Below are positions 22,003 through 31,923 of a DNA stretch of 38,641 nucleotides, in pieces. The notes under the pieces are model-generated. The model was not told where the DNA came from, made no database searches, and worked only from the letters and a program-made list of their open reading frames with translations. The position numbers and the translations under genes were made by a program. This DNA comes from a virus. The first letter of the stretch is position 1. Every line of letters begins with the position of its first letter. The stretch spans positions 1 to 38,641 of IMG/VR virus record IMGVR_UViG_3300042892_002737; one strand, given 5' to 3'.

Positions 22003-22161
22003 AAAGCACGATGACTACTTTAACATTCAAACAACACGGCTCACATATTGCTCAGTTATGGGCGATAAATGTGCCGGCGTTTGGAATGGAAGCCACAACC
22101 AGTATCCGCAATTATGATAGAGTTGAGGGGCTTAGTTAAAGTACAGTACACATCGTGCTTT
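22003..22161 (+). ncRNA. Candidate stem-closed small RNA
   Basis: The two ends are perfectly complementary over 11 bases (22003-22013 and 22151-22161), which would close a RNA domain of about 160 nt. A promoter lies upstream and a rho-independent terminator begins seven bases later, so it has the layout of an independent RNA gene of about 210 nt. I do not recognise the family. A 42-codon frame lies inside it, so a leader or a dual RNA is an alternative. Confidence 0.45.
22011..22139 (+). CDS. Possible 42-aa small protein inside the candidate RNA
   Basis: An ATG-started frame of 42 codons fills the candidate RNA. The peptide (start M-T-T-L-T-F-K-Q-H-G) has a protein-like composition but no recognisable motif. 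No Shine-Dalgarno precedes it, and its start codon is buried in the closing stem. I list it only as possible. Confidence 0.25.
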   Translation: MTTLTFKQHGSHIAQLWAINVPAFGMEATTSIRNYDRVEGLS

Positions 22162-22167
22162 TTATCT

Positions 22168-22200
22168 AAACCCTGAAAATTCAAACTTTCAGGGTTTTTT
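22168..22200 (+). terminator. Rho-independent terminator
   Basis: An 11-bp stem built on CCCTGAAA/TTTCAGGG with an eight-base loop ends in six T's. It closes the transcript of the candidate small RNA. Confidence 0.88.
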
Positions 22201-23296: not shown

Positions 23297-23380
23297 GGGG
23301 TGGAAGCATCAATGGTGATGCAGTGGACTGTAAATCCGCCGCCTAAGGCATGACTGGTTCGATCCCAGTACACCCCACCA
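23297..23380 (+). tRNA. tRNA-Tyr(GTA)
   Basis: The anticodon arm is GTGGA-CTGTAAA-TCCGC with a long class II variable arm, as in bacterial tRNA-Tyr. CCA is encoded. The last acceptor pair is G-A, a mismatch. Confidence 0.9.
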
Positions 23381-23615: not shown

Positions 23616-23945
23616 ATGAACAACGAAATAGAACTTAATCGTCATTCAGCAGGCAAATTTGCTTGGTTCGCCGCACGTGATGCAAGGCAACGTAGTCTTA
23701 CTAACTCAACATTGTACACTGATGCACAAAAAGTAACAGCAGAACGAGTTAAATTGGGACTAGAAATATGCTACTCTGCAAAAGATATTTACATTGAGTA
23801 TCGCAAAAAGTTTATCTCTATCAAACTCAATCAGCCCACAGTGCGTGATCGCAAAGCTTTGGCGTTGTTAGAATCTGATTACGATAAATTTGGTTACGAA
23901 AAATGCAAGACTGCAGCGGGTGTTACTTATAGACTGTTTAAGTAA
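23616..23945 (+). CDS. Hypothetical protein (109 aa)
   Basis: This basic, helical protein is not recognised. It opens N-R-H-S-A-G-K-F-A-W-F-A-A-R-D-A-R-Q-R, then V-K-L-G-L-E-I-C-Y-S-A, and ends G-V-T-Y-R-L-F-K. Many Lys and Arg residues could fit nucleic-acid binding, which is only a guess. CGGAG precedes the ATG. It has its own strong promoter. Confidence 0.65.
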   Translation: MNNEIELNRHSAGKFAWFAARDARQRSLTNSTLYTDAQKVTAERVKLGLEICYSAKDIYIEYRKKFISIKLNQPTVRDRKALALLESDYDKFGYEKCKTAAGVTYRLFK

Positions 23946-23948
23946 CAC

Positions 23949-23977
23949 TTGACACTAATTCGTTTTGGGTGTATAAT
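23949..23977 (+). promoter_or_regulatory. Sigma-70 promoter, copy 2 of a duplicated cassette
   Basis: TTGACA-17-TATAAT, both boxes perfect. The spacer is identical in 16 or more of 17 bases to that at 23563-23579. Confidence 0.88.
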
Positions 23978-24010
23978 AGCTGTATAAACTGAGAAAACAA
24001 GGAGAAACAA

Positions 24011-24199
24011 ATGAGCAAAAATACTGAATTGGCTAAGCGTCTGCGTTGCAATATATTTGCAAATCGTGACACAGTAGATGAAGCATTGGCTTATGCTTAT
24101 GAAACACTTAAAAACAACCCCACTGGACTCACTGCGCTGTATGTAGTACTTAACACAGTGTGCAATGAAATTGAAGCAAACGAAAAAGAAGTTGCATAA
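24011..24199 (+). CDS. Small hypothetical protein (62 aa)
   Basis: An all-helical, acidic protein: an N-terminal K-R-L-R-C-N-I-F, a middle D-E-A-L-A-Y-A-Y-E-T-L and a final helix ending E-K-E-V-A. AAGGAG lies before the ATG. No family recognised. It is the last coding gene before the large RNA region. Confidence 0.65.
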   Translation: MSKNTELAKRLRCNIFANRDTVDEALAYAYETLKNNPTGLTALYVVLNTVCNEIEANEKEVA

Positions 24200-24203
24200 A
24201 CGG

Positions 24204-24232
24204 TTGACACAAAATCAGTAGTTTGCTATAAT
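24204..24232 (+). promoter_or_regulatory. Perfect sigma-70 promoter for tRNA-Glu and the large RNA
   Basis: TTGACA and TATAAT are perfect and 17 bases apart, just after the stop of the 62-aa gene. The predicted transcript passes an rrn-like boxA (24288), tRNA-Glu and then the structured region. Confidence 0.88.
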
Positions 24233-24287
24233 AGTGGTATTGAATCAAGCAGCAAGCAGCAAGCACCAAACAGTGCGCTGACATGAG

Positions 24288-24301
24288 TACTCTTTAACAA
24301 T
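24288..24301 (+). promoter_or_regulatory. rrn-type boxA antitermination element
   Basis: TACTCTTTAACAAT differs by a single base from the E. coli rRNA boxA (TGCTCTTTAACAAT). In rRNA operons boxA RNA loads NusB and S10 and lets polymerase cross long untranslated RNA without Rho termination. Here it lies about 55 bases after a strong promoter and before tRNA-Glu and more than 1 kb of non-coding sequence, where the same function is needed. The match is direct; the function is inferred. Confidence 0.65.
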
Positions 24302-24317
24302 TTAGAGCAGTAACAAT

Positions 24318-24392
24318 GTACCGTTAGACTTCTGGTGAGGTCATCACCCTTTCAAGGTGACTAGATGGGATCGTAACCCATACGGTATACCA
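24318..24392 (+). tRNA. tRNA-Glu(TTC)
   Basis: The acceptor GTACCGT pairs with ACGGTAT. The anticodon arm is TCACC-CTTTCAA-GGTGA, the T arm ATGGG-ATCGTAA-CCCAT (unusual loop), and CCA is encoded. Its 3' strand plus CCA is also one arm of a 19-bp helix with 24532-24550, so tRNA folding and that helix exclude each other. Confidence 0.85.
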
Positions 24393-25512
24393 TAGTAAAA
24401 CATATTAGTTGCCCTTGCAAGCAATTGCATTGAGGACTGCGGAATCCTGAACATACAGATTACCTAGAAAAGCGAGAAACAAATTGGAAACGATTTGCCA
24501 AGCGTAAGGCTGCGTCAGGCTGGTTCATTAGTATGTTTTACTATGGTATAGTCTACCAAAAGAACGTTCCAGCGTCACTGGATACTCTGACCCGGAGGAT
24601 GAGAAGTGCTATGACAAGCACGGGTGGTACACTTTAAACCGAAAGTGCGCTGGCAATGCGAGAACGGAACCTGTCGTGGAGAGGGTGGAGGCCGTGCGTG
24701 ATGAAAGACTAATTGGTGAGTGCAAACTTGCTGACCAAATTTCTGATACGGTATAATTACCTCCGGGGTTCGCAGAGCATTTAACTTGAGTTATGGCAAG
24801 CGGTCCATAGACGGGAGTGTAACCCGATAGATACAGAACATAAGTATCCAACGTGATGAGCCTTGTTTGACCGTAGAGTTTAGGCAAGAAACACATAACG
24901 AAACGGCAGGCGTTAAACGGGATTACAATCGCCTAGGTAATCAAGAATATTGGGGCATTGCGCCAGATGAGACTCTCCCTTGCATACGGAGTATAATGTG
25001 ATAAGTTGTATGCAGTCTACATACCTCGTCCTAGCAGATTCAGACGTTAAATGAATCTGCATATTGAAACACATTAATCTTGGGTAGTTTCGCCAAGTCT
25101 GACCGGCTTGGGTTTCCGCTATAAGATGCAAGGTAAACTAGTCCTCTCGTCAAGGTTCTTGCTAGTGTGTTTCAATATGGTATATCAGTTGTTAGTGAGT
25201 CATTCACGGGACTGGCGAAAGCACATCAAGACTCGGAATCTTGGACACTGACTACAGACGCAATGGTAGGTGCACCTGCTGTTGTTGATACACCATAATT
25301 AAGTGCTATAAGGTATGTGATCTGATCAATCACTATACGGGTCAAAGCCGCCGGCGACTGATCCTGATATAACTGCATCGGCTATGACTGGGAAGCACCC
25401 AACGTCTAAATTTGCATATAGCACTTAATTATGGTATAGCTTAATACAAGAGCAGTGGGAACACAGGTATCAACGCCTACCCATGAGTACAGGTGCAACT
25501 CCTGTTACCATA
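24386..25512 (+). ncRNA. Large structured non-coding RNA region (candidate giant ornate RNA)
   Basis: About 1.1 kb has no believable gene on either strand but many perfect helices. Long-range: 24386-24404 with 24532-24550 (19 bp), 25060-25076 with 25163-25179 (17 bp), 25293-25310 with 25417-25434 (18 bp) and 25177-25187 with 25287-25297 (one mismatch). Local hairpins: 24606/24617, 24630/24642, 24713/24734, 24750/24758, 24982/25008, 25034-25042/25052-25060 (9 bp) and 25227/25239. It follows a perfect promoter, boxA and tRNA-Glu, and ends in a tRNA-like fold. Size, phage origin and tRNA neighbourhood fit the GOLLD and ROOL classes of large bacterial RNA, but I cannot match a conserved core, so a new class is equally possible. 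Boundaries are approximate. Confidence 0.6.
25430..25512 (+). other. tRNA-like terminal structure without a normal anticodon arm
   Basis: TATGGTA and TACCATA form a perfect 7-bp acceptor-like stem. It is followed inside by a D-like arm (GCTT/GAGC) and a perfect T-like arm (ACAGG-TGCAACT-CCTGT). The space for the anticodon arm holds about 35 nt that do not fold into a 5-bp stem with a 7-nt loop, and no CCA follows. The 5' strand also belongs to the 18-bp helix of the preceding RNA, so it could switch. Confidence 0.5.
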
Positions 25513-25532
25513 ACATTATTTGATTTGTGCAG

Positions 25533-25760
25533 CTATTTGTTGAACCTGCGAACATGTGTCCATATGGGAGCGTCAAGCACATGCGTAGTACCCTCATCGC
25601 CACCTATACGTAATCGTAGTTCGGGGTCTACTCCCTGATCAACGTGTTTGGATACAAAACGAGCAAGAGTGGCGTCACTGGTGTATATTAACATAACGCC
25701 CTGATCATTGCACACGGTGTACATGGTAATACCAAATCTGTCTCTGGATATGTCTAGCAT
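25533..25760 (-). CDS. Possible hypothetical protein on the opposite strand (75 aa)
   Basis: The only good frame in 25513-25795 lies on the minus strand, against the tRNA direction. The peptide is protein-like: M-L-D-I-S-R-D-R-F-G-I-T-M-Y-T-V-C, then L-I-Y-T-S-D-A-T-L-A-R-F-V. No Shine-Dalgarno is clear before the ATG and no family is recognised. It could be a gene moved in with the surrounding RNA elements. Confidence 0.42.
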   Translation of the reverse strand: MLDISRDRFGITMYTVCNDQGVMLIYTSDATLARFVSKHVDQGVDPELRLRIGGDEGTTHVLDAPIWTHVRRFNK

Positions 25761-25798
25761 CACATATTTATTATGGTACAGCGTTATATAATGAGCAT

Positions 25799-25873
25799 AT
25801 ATTGAAACACATTAGTTCTTGGGGTTGTTCCCAAGATAATTGTATCCAATGGATCCCTAGTGTGTTTCAATAT
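25799..25873 (+). ncRNA. Leader hairpin fused to tRNA-Ala, copy of a large-RNA helix
   Basis: A 17-bp helix (25799-25815 with 25857-25873) encloses a 7-bp hairpin (TCTTGGG/CCCAAGA) and a small second hairpin. It ends exactly one base before the first base of tRNA-Ala. The same helix sequence (ATATTGAAACACATTA and its partner), followed by CTTGGG, is found in the large RNA at 25061 and 25163. It may guide tRNA 5' processing or be a shortened duplicate of the RNA element. Confidence 0.6.
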
Positions 25874-25947
25874 GGGCTGGTAGTATAATGGGATTACGGT
25901 AGCTTTGCAAGCTATTTATAGGAGTTCGATTCTCCTCCGGTCCACCA
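25874..25947 (+). tRNA. tRNA-Ala(TGC)
   Basis: Acceptor GGGCTGG pairs with CCGGTCC. The anticodon loop is TTTGCAA, the T arm AGGAG-TTCGATT-CTCCT and CCA is encoded. The expected G3-U70 identity pair for alanine is present. Confidence 0.92.
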
Positions 25948-25953
25948 TTAAAT

Positions 25954-26029
25954 GGAGTAGTAGCATAGCGGCAAATGCATCTCCCTGTCTAGGAGACCAT
26001 CGTGGGTTCGAGTCCCATCTACTTCGCCA
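25954..26029 (+). tRNA. tRNA-Asp(GTC)
   Basis: Acceptor GGAGTAG pairs with CTACTTC, discriminator G, encoded CCA. The anticodon arm is TCTCC-CTGTCTA-GGAGA. Confidence 0.93.
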
Positions 26030-26050
26030 AACAAACTGATAGGAAATAAC

Positions 26051-26191
26051 ATGGCCAATGTAAAGCAGGGCAATTTGACAAGACCACCACAGTGGTGGAA
26101 ACACTTGAAAGATTGGAAACGAGTATTTTGGAAAACAGAGCGTCAAGCGCACAAAGATGCAATCAAAAAAGACTGTCCCAATGGACAGTGA
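26051..26191 (+). CDS. Small basic conserved phage protein (46 aa)
   Basis: The 46-residue protein is very basic, with R-P-P-Q-W-W-K-H-L-K-D-W-K-R-V-F-W-K-T-E-R-Q-A-H-K. The Trp/Lys-rich helix recurs in small proteins of aquatic myophages and suits nucleic-acid or membrane contact; no function is known. AGGAAA lies before the ATG. The next 89 bases (26192-26280) hold nothing I can identify. Confidence 0.7.
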   Translation: MANVKQGNLTRPPQWWKHLKDWKRVFWKTERQAHKDAIKKDCPNGQ

Positions 26192-31081: not shown

Positions 31082-31378
31082 GCCCGAATGATGGAATAGG
31101 TAGACATAGCAGACTTGAGAGTAAAATTTGAGTGCCCTGGGGGAAATCCTAGGAGTAGAATTCGTCAAATTCGGTGAACGCTTTAAAATGCCAATACCGA
31201 GCGAAGCTAAGTAAGAAATTACTTTGAACGTGTAGAGACTAGACGGCGAACATCTAAGGTAGCAATACTATGATGAAGGTATAGTCCAGACCGCAAACTG
31301 AAAAGGTAGCGAAAGCTATAGTGGTAAGAAAATCTGCCGGCGCGAGCCGTCCCGGTTCAAGTCCGGGTTCGGGTACCA
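31082..31378 (+). tRNA. tRNA-Leu(TAA) interrupted by a group I intron
   Basis: Exons 31082-31116 and 31329-31378 join into a complete class II tRNA: acceptor GCCCGAA with TTCGGGT, anticodon arm GCAGA-CTTAAAA-TCTGC and encoded CCA. The joined loop reads anticodon TAA (leucine). The break lies between U34 and A35 of the anticodon, the same site used by the tRNA-Leu(UAA) intron of cyanobacteria and plastids. The 5' exon ends in U and the intron ends in G, as group I splicing requires. Confidence 0.93.
31117..31328 (+). other. Group I intron (212 nt, no reading frame)
   Basis: Core elements appear in order: GCCAATACCGAGC (P4/Q region), AGAGACTAGACGG (P7/R region), AAGGTATAGTCC (S region) and GGTAGCGAAAGCT, a hairpin closed by a GNRA loop as in P9. 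Their sequence and spacing follow the tRNA-Leu(UAA) introns of cyanobacteria. It carries no endonuclease; the nearest homing-type gene is the HNH at 22597. At 212 nt it is among the small group I introns and is probably self-splicing. Confidence 0.92.
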
Positions 31379-31586: not shown

Positions 31587-31662
31587 GCATCGTTAGCTCA
31601 GTTGGTAGAGCGTCGCCTTTACACGGCGAATGTCGGCGGTTCGAGCCCGTCACGATGTACCA
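31587..31662 (+). tRNA. tRNA-Val(TAC)
   Basis: Acceptor GCATCGT pairs with ACGATGT (first pair G-U), the anticodon arm is TCGCC-TTTACAC-GGCGA and CCA is encoded. Confidence 0.93.
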
Positions 31663-31686
31663 TTCACCCTAACAGAAGAAAACACA

Positions 31687-31923
31687 ATGAACAAGATATA
31701 CGGACTTGATGGCATGGACGGCAGAACATCATCATTAGCTGCCAAACAAATTGGCGGCAAAGGTGGATTGTTTGATTTGGTGCTGGTGGCCAGTATCAGA
31801 GTAAGAGAACTTAAAAAAGGCCATGCTCCCAAAATAAACACTGGTCATGGCATCACCGTAACAGCACTGTGTGAAATTGAACAGGGTTTTATTGGTAGAG
31901 ATTATCTACGCAAATTAAAGTAA
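31687..31923 (+). CDS. RNA polymerase omega subunit-like protein
   Basis: The 78-residue protein holds the omega core: F-D-L-V-L-V-A-S-I-R-V-R-E-L-K-K-G (bacterial omega has F-x-L-V-L-x-A-x-x-R-A-R-x-L), and later V-T-A-L-C-E-I-E-Q-G-F-I (bacterial A-L-x-E-I-x-x-G-x-I). The N-terminal 20 residues differ from cellular RpoZ. Omega binds the beta-prime subunit and supports polymerase assembly and ppGpp response. A phage copy could replace host omega and alter promoter choice. There is only a weak purine-rich site before the ATG. It lies between tRNA-Val and tRNA-Trp. Confidence 0.78.
   Translation: MNKIYGLDGMDGRTSSLAAKQIGGKGGLFDLVLVASIRVRELKKGHAPKINTGHGITVTALCEIEQGFIGRDYLRKLK

What the first reader, a model, noticed from the sequence alone, without database searches (positions are those of the whole stretch)
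24386..25512. About 1.1 kb giant structured RNA inside a phage tRNA cluster
Between tRNA-Glu and tRNA-Ala no gene is visible on either strand, yet perfect long-range helices of 17-19 bp and about ten local hairpins fill the sequence. It has its own perfect sigma-70 promoter and an rrn-like boxA. GOLLD and ROOL, large RNAs of unknown function, are known from phages and prophages next to tRNAs. This may be a member or a new class. I saw the pairing directly; the class is inference.
Basis: partly seen in the sequence, partly recalled or inferred. Interest (0 to 1): 0.88.

Follow-up and report, generated by a model that had tools for sequence, protein, structure and literature searches.

The report
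Phage tRNA array with RNA cassettes
The stretch is not one giant RNA but a row of separate small structured RNAs, several of them new families, packed between the tRNA genes of a large water-dwelling virus of bacteria, many of them closed by a long RNA stem that starts exactly on the 3' CCA end of a tRNA.

Summary
The helices, promoter and boxA are real, but 24386-25512 is not one giant RNA, and it is not GOLLD or ROOL. It is a tandem array of independent non-coding RNAs inside a tRNA operon. Element E (24560-24781) and element G (25288-25440) are new phage-only RNA families: 48 and 22 distinct sequences, compensatory changes in 29 of 35 and 37 of 46 pairs, single copy per phage, shuffled order in relatives. 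Around them lie "stem cassettes": 17-24 bp helices closing a variable structured payload. In relatives such stems start on the NCCA end of the preceding tRNA (170 of 2,069 tRNA ends, 0 in shuffles), mostly Lys-UUU, Glu-UUC and Gln-UUG. All lie on the tRNA strand (150/150). Close relatives carry different payloads between the same flanks. The boxA leader is conserved (48 versus 1.5 expected). Cultured phages (Acinetobacter Saclayvirus, Bacillus FADO) have the same layout. Most likely mechanism (inferred): one antiterminated precursor, stems cut by host RNase III, payloads released as small stable RNAs with host-takeover or anti-defence roles. No transcript data were available.

The parts
24204..24232 (+). 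sigma-70 consensus promoter TTGACA-17-TATAAT of the tRNA/ncRNA operon
   Evidence: sequence; the same promoter plus boxA layout found in 43 contexts
24290..24299 (+). boxA-like antitermination motif CTCTTTAACA
   Evidence: conserved 16-17 nt before first tRNA in relatives, 48 observed versus 1.45 in shuffles
24318..24392 (+). tRNA-Glu(UUC); its 3' TATACCA is the start of the first long stem
24386..24550 (+). stem cassette A: 24-bp stem anchored on the tRNA-Glu CCA, 117-nt payload without known relatives
24560..24781 (+). element E: new phage ncRNA family, 176-283 nt, 8 covarying helices plus a probable pseudoknot
   Evidence: 220 bits to model R2; covariation
24783..24948 (+). element F: separate conserved ncRNA candidate of about 165 nt
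   Evidence: 89-96% identical copies in L088 (after E) and L093 (apart from E)
24949..25059 (+). unassigned spacer; 39-47 nt within it are similar to tRNA-array spacers of L166, L251, L178
25060..25179 (+). stem cassette B with the widespread arms CATATTGAAACACATTA / TAGTGTGTTTCAATATG
25176..25297 (+). unassigned stretch whose ends can form a 13-position helix with one mismatch (read by eye); no relatives found
   Evidence: sequence
25288..25440 (+). element G: new phage ncRNA family, core of about 110 nt closed by a 19-20 bp stem of freely varying sequence
   Evidence: 138 bits to model R1; covariation
25430..25513 (+). tRNA-like sequence with 7-bp acceptor stem and T arm but an enlarged anticodon loop; homologue in L107
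   Evidence: Rfam tRNA 42.6 bits
25799..25873 (+). stem cassette D, reaching the 5' end of tRNA-Ala; payload related to L155 and L229
25874..25947 (+). tRNA-Ala(UGC)

Best explanation
SHOWN: the region is a chain of independent RNA units inside a tRNA operon of a large aquatic phage: cassette A, ncRNA E, ncRNA F, cassette B, ncRNA G, a tRNA-like unit and cassette D. Many units in this phage group are 'stem cassettes': a 17-24 bp helix whose 5' strand begins on the NCCA 3' end of the upstream tRNA and whose 3' strand ends at or near the next unit, enclosing an exchangeable structured payload. INFERRED: one transcript from a strong sigma-70 promoter is kept going through structured RNA by boxA antitermination, as in rRNA operons. 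Host RNase III cuts the long stems and RNase P cuts the tRNA 5' ends, so that tRNAs and payloads are released as separate small stable RNAs; pairing of the stem with the CCA keeps the tRNA immature until the stem is cut. The payloads, together with E and G, most likely act in trans on host components (host takeover or counter-defence), which would explain their rapid exchange between relatives.
For: Independent units: E, F and G occur apart and in different orders in relatives; E is single copy in 18 and G in 13 of 25 large contigs of 80-400 kb. RNA-level selection: E 99.1% paired, 29/35 pairs compensatory, 48 sequences (unbiased MAFFT alignment 97.1%, 18/39, slid controls 30-51%); G 97.6%, 37/46 (unbiased 96.9%, 31/46). 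Stems on tRNA ends: score >=14 in 170 of 2,069 contexts versus 0 in shuffles, start peak at -5 to -3 from the tRNA end. Same strand as tRNA 150/150 for cassettes, 43/43 for E and 20/20 for G. Cassette exchange: same tRNA-Lys site, arms and downstream flank with unrelated payload, L006 versus L005/L007/L011/L114; tRNA-Arg site of Saclayviruses with three unrelated stems and payloads. boxA. Processing-stem analogy: long freely covarying stems, as around rRNAs (established knowledge).
Against: No RNA-seq or cleavage data; transcription and RNase III cutting are not shown. None of 14 large related contigs encodes an RNase III recognisable by Pfam, so the host enzyme must be assumed. Stem arms of the commonest cassette type are conserved in sequence, more than an RNase III site needs. 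No payload has a known target. Nearly half of window 24393-25873 has no relatives, so those parts could be inert.
Confidence: 0.6

Rival explanations
1. One giant ornate RNA of about 1.1 kb, a GOLLD/ROOL relative or a new class of that sort.
For: Size, position in a phage tRNA array, long helices. GOLLD does occur in the tRNA arrays of related phages (L136, L244; a 344-kb contig).
Against: No GOLLD or ROOL match even at E = 5. Constituent elements occur independently and rearranged; E is directly followed by a tRNA or a protein gene in several relatives. The stems are local closures of units, not a shared global fold.
Confidence: 0.04
2. Mobile DNA cassettes: the stem arms are terminal inverted repeats or recombination sequences, and the payloads are passengers; the RNA stem is a by-product.
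For: Conserved arms with interchangeable contents, payload families found at several tRNAs, exchange at fixed sites, homing endonucleases nearby (GIY-YIG-like frame inside E of L015).
Against: All 150 cassettes with a nearby tRNA lie in tRNA orientation and within 1.4 kb of a tRNA. Arms vary with compensation: T-A, A-T, G-C at arm position 6. At one site stem and payload both differ completely while pairing is kept. No transposase or integrase was seen with them.
Confidence: 0.15
3. tRNA maturation gate: the stem sequesters the NCCA end so that particular tRNAs stay immature until a signal acting on the payload opens or cuts the stem.
For: Stems start on the discriminator and CCA; strong preference for Lys-UUU, Glu-UUC and Gln-UUG, 22/44 versus 5/334 other tRNAs, P = 5e-19 without correction for shared descent.
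Against: Payload families are shared by tRNAs of different identity; cassettes B and D and many others do not follow a tRNA. No ligand-like core is common to payloads.
Confidence: 0.12
4. Inert spacers or degenerate tRNAs kept only as processing substrates.
For: Some payloads contain a T-arm or a tRNA-like body (L006, L114, L117, L166); local folding of much of the window stretch is at chance level.
Against: E and G have invariant unpaired cores and extensive compensatory change; several payload families recur in different phages.
Confidence: 0.09

Closest known systems
GOLLD RNA (Rfam RF02032) and ROOL RNA
   Same: Structured phage/prophage RNAs of unknown function encoded near tRNA islands (PMC12286853); GOLLD occurs in tRNA arrays of related phages here.
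   Different: GOLLD often exceeds 800 nt and both are single RNAs forming homo-oligomeric cages (PMC12286853); the window stretch matches neither model and consists of units of about 75-220 nt.
Phage T4 stable RNAs C and D (species 1 and 2)
   Same: Small stable RNAs of 139 and 119 nt directly downstream of a tRNA in a phage tRNA cluster with a GIY-YIG endonuclease; RNA C carries a T-arm-like hairpin.
   Different: No relation to E by model; no long stem on a tRNA CCA in the T4 cluster; two RNAs only, no exchangeable cassettes seen.
Ribosomal RNA operons (processing stems and boxA leader)
   Same: Promoter, boxA, long complementary stems around each RNA, tRNAs in the same transcript.
   Different: No rRNA; stems enclose small variable RNAs; RNase III dependence not shown.
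MITEs and integron-type gene cassettes
   Same: Conserved inverted arms around variable contents.
   Different: Fixed orientation, tRNA-array confinement, pairing kept while sequence changes, no recombinase seen.

Membership tests
GOLLD RNA | match to the Rfam model of the conserved domain | tested here: not met
   no hit at gathering or E<=5; positive controls L136 198 bits, L244 189 bits
GOLLD RNA | one long RNA, often above 800 nt | tested here: not met
   units found apart and reordered
GOLLD RNA | phage or prophage location near tRNAs | tested here: met
GOLLD RNA | homo-oligomeric RNA cage | not testable with these tools
   needs cryo-EM
ROOL RNA | match to the Rfam ROOL model | tested here: not met
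T4 stable RNAs C/D | small RNA next to a tRNA within a phage tRNA cluster | tested here: met
T4 stable RNAs C/D | sequence or structure homology | tested here: not met
   model R2 finds nothing in the T4 cluster; no phage BLAST hit for E
T4 stable RNAs C/D | stable transcript seen in infected cells | not testable with these tools
   no RNA data
Group I intron | match to Rfam Intron_gpI | tested here: not met
   absent from 23900-26100 although found at 31113-31309
rRNA-type processing operon (works like) | boxA-like leader | tested here: met
rRNA-type processing operon (works like) | long complementary stems around units | tested here: met
rRNA-type processing operon (works like) | cleavage by RNase III | not testable with these tools
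   needs bench work; no phage-encoded RNase III in 14 large relatives
MITE or transposon | independent of strand and of neighbouring gene type | tested here: not met
   150/150 on tRNA strand, median distance to tRNA 0
MITE or transposon | target-site duplication | tested here: inconclusive
   TA next to arms in many copies but these bases also pair in the stem

The most novel reading that the evidence does not exclude
Large aquatic phages keep a fast-changing library of small structured RNAs in standardised stem cassettes hooked onto the CCA ends of tRNAs, above all the UUN tRNAs Lys, Glu and Gln, which include known targets of host tRNA-cutting defences; payloads are swapped between lineages as an RNA-based counter-defence arsenal, alongside the new single-copy ncRNAs E and G.
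Probability: 0.3. Interest if true: 0.93.

Novelty: new variant of a known kind. Interest (0 to 1): 0.82.

Why it matters
It adds at least two strongly supported new RNA families and shows a general layout of phage tRNA arrays, stems hooked on tRNA CCA ends that close exchangeable RNAs, also present in cultured phages where it can be tested. It places GOLLD and the long-unexplained T4 stable RNAs in a wider setting: tRNA arrays as carriers of many non-coding RNAs. If payloads counter host defences, as phage tRNAs do (PMC11555353, PMC13096335), the arrays would be a mine of RNA inhibitors.

Tried and rejected
Single giant RNA and GOLLD/ROOL membership. Group I intron or other Rfam family for E, G and cassettes: only chance-level hits. 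Bacterial homologues: none of 84,980 genomes carries the E pattern or the common stem arms. Cultured-phage homologues by sequence: none for E; only chance hits for cassettes. HDV-like self-cleavage at the tRNA/E junction considered and dropped because 18 of 44 E copies do not abut a recognised tRNA. CsrB-like GGA sponge considered for E and dropped: the AGGATG motif is not conserved (L005 has ACGATG). Hidden protein genes: ORF 25533-25763(-) has no Pfam hit and no relatives. Phage RNase III: not found. T4 RNA C/D homology: none. Paper searches for an earlier description of such stems gave none, but only open-licence papers are held. F could not be extended beyond three copies.

Full report
1. 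What is in the window. The window is a 38,641-base IMG/VR virus record with 19 ARAGORN tRNAs between 23211 and 32481, ribonucleotide reductase, tail and endolysin genes, and DnaK, a PPIase and a rubrerythrin-like protein. tRNA-Glu (24318-24392) and tRNA-Ala (25874-25947) are separated by 1,481 bases that hold no recognisable gene.

2. The observation. Three helices of 24, 17 and 19 bp are present; the longest helix in 60 dinucleotide shuffles was 10-16 bp. The promoter and boxA-like motif are present and turn out to be a conserved leader: boxA-like motifs precede 48 of 2,046 distinct tRNA contexts in relatives against 1.45 expected, mostly tRNA-Glu, Gln and Leu, 16-17 nt before the tRNA. Local folding energy is unremarkable for most 200-nt windows, so minimum-energy hairpins alone prove nothing. 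The first stem begins inside the CCA of tRNA-Glu and the last 80 nt are tRNA-like, so the proposed boundaries are not natural ones.

3. The stretch is composite. Relatives were gathered through the DnaK neighbour, through conserved DNA patterns and by model search. Element E sits alone after tRNA-Asp in L005 and L011, after tRNA-Tyr in L015, and before a protein gene in L095 and L099. F follows E in L088 but is separate from E in L093. G lies next to tRNA-Glu in L110 and after E in L085 and L086. Separate, reordered occurrence excludes a single obligate RNA.

4. Element E. Twenty-two distinct sequences aligned by MAFFT give 45 RNAalifold pairs, 17 with compensatory change. A curated structure has 97.1% of cells paired against 30-51% when slid, and includes a probable pseudoknot (ACCC with GGGT) that switches to G-C in L085. 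The extended set of 48 sequences has 29 of 35 pairs with compensatory change and 99.1% paired (this alignment is fitted to the model and leans towards it). Many unpaired positions are invariant or nearly so (GATGAGAAG, GGTAC, the AATTACC stretch), the mark of a complex fold or of binding sites. The E pattern is absent from 84,980 prokaryote genomes, E is absent from cultured phages, and it is single copy in 18 of 25 related large contigs. In L015 it is interrupted by an ORF whose sequence I read as a GIY-YIG homing endonuclease (not tested against a family library).

5. Element G. Fifteen sequences give 46 pairs, 31 with compensatory change; 22 distinct model hits give 37 of 46. Its closing stem of about 20 bp changes almost completely in sequence between phages while pairing is kept. 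The window copy scores 138 bits. It is single copy in 13 of 25 large contigs.

6. Stem cassettes. A helix of 17-24 bp starting on the NCCA end of a tRNA is the closing stem of many inter-tRNA units. Among 2,069 distinct tRNA 3' contexts, 170 reach helix score 14 against none after shuffling the downstream sequence, and the 5' strand most often starts 5 to 3 nt before the tRNA end. Part of these loci were fetched by the arm pattern; in the set gathered without it the figure was 27 of 379 against 0. The commonest arms read CCATATNNAAACACATT and AGTGTGTTTCNATATGG; 151 copies were collected, 150 of 150 on the strand of the nearest tRNA (one further copy lies in a locus without a tRNA), and more exist because the scan stopped at its limit. 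None was found in bacterial genomes. Payloads of roughly 30-100 nt fall into 25 clusters plus 70 singletons; one cluster can follow tRNA-Lys, Gln or Thr.

7. Exchange. Around tRNA-Lys, L006 has the same arms and the same downstream sequence as L005, L007, L011 and L114 but an unrelated payload. In cultured Acinetobacter Saclayviruses the tRNA-Arg site carries three unrelated stems and payloads in close relatives, in each case a stem of 20-29 bp starting at or within 4 nt of the CCA; in Aci05 and D22 it ends at the 5' end of tRNA-Phe. Bacillus phage FADO has such a unit after tRNA-Trp. T4, Rhodobacter phage RcXuper and Stenotrophomonas phage DLP6 have none at this threshold.

8. tRNA preference. 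In loci not chosen by arms, 22 of 44 Lys-UUU, Glu-UUC and Gln-UUG contexts carry a CCA stem against 5 of 334 others. E most often abuts Tyr, Asp and Asn tRNAs (20 of 26 abutting cases). Both figures count related phages as independent and should be repeated on a tree.

9. How it probably works (inference). Conserved promoter plus boxA implies antiterminated transcription of a long structured precursor, as in rRNA operons. Long, freely covarying stems are typical RNase III substrates; no RNase III was found in 14 large related phage contigs, so the host enzyme is assumed. Cutting would free payloads and expose tRNA CCA ends. A trans-acting role of payloads in counter-defence is suggested by their rapid exchange and by the known use of phage tRNAs against tRNA-cutting defences (PMC11555353: tRNA-Lys against PrrC; PMC13096335: tRNA-Tyr amplification by SegB against Septu), but nothing here shows it.

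10. Relation to known systems. GOLLD and ROOL share the location (PMC12286853) but not sequence, size or, as far as tested, unity. GOLLD is present in some of the same phage group, so the arrays carry several kinds of RNA. The T4 stable RNAs C and D are the closest functional parallel but are not homologous as far as tested.

11. Limits. No expression data; covariation by pair counts with controls, not by R-scape; contigs mostly fragments; hosts unknown; parts of the window stretch (cassette A payload, cassette B payload, 25180-25288, 25514-25798) have no relatives and remain unexplained.

Noticed in passing
window 22003-22170: Another long stem-closed unit (folding z-score about -8), not next to a tRNA, whose outer flanks match relatives while the stem and contents do not: possibly a further exchangeable cassette.
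   Followed up: partly
window 31113-31309: Group I intron (Rfam, 59 bits) just after tRNA-Leu in the array; a similar hit in L089.
   Followed up: no
window 23297-23377: Additional tRNA by Rfam (35 bits) missed by ARAGORN.
   Followed up: no
L136 7933-8393, L244 311-775: GOLLD RNA (198 and 189 bits) in tRNA arrays of the same phage group; the L136 copy contains a tRNA.
   Followed up: partly
L086 13937-14332, L099 10539-10918: tmRNA genes near the tRNA arrays of related phages.
   Followed up: no
L015 6150-6730: ORF with a GIY-YIG-like motif interrupting element E, similar in setting to segB in the T4 tRNA cluster.
   Followed up: no
L005, L085 and other E loci: E preferentially abuts GUN tRNAs (Tyr, Asp, Asn), whereas stem cassettes prefer UUN tRNAs (Lys, Glu, Gln); the two sets carry different wobble modifications in bacteria (own knowledge). 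Shared descent not corrected.
   Followed up: partly
window 31630-31923: Weak match to the RNA polymerase omega/Rpb6 family (25 bits, just below cut-off) encoded inside the tRNA array.
   Followed up: no
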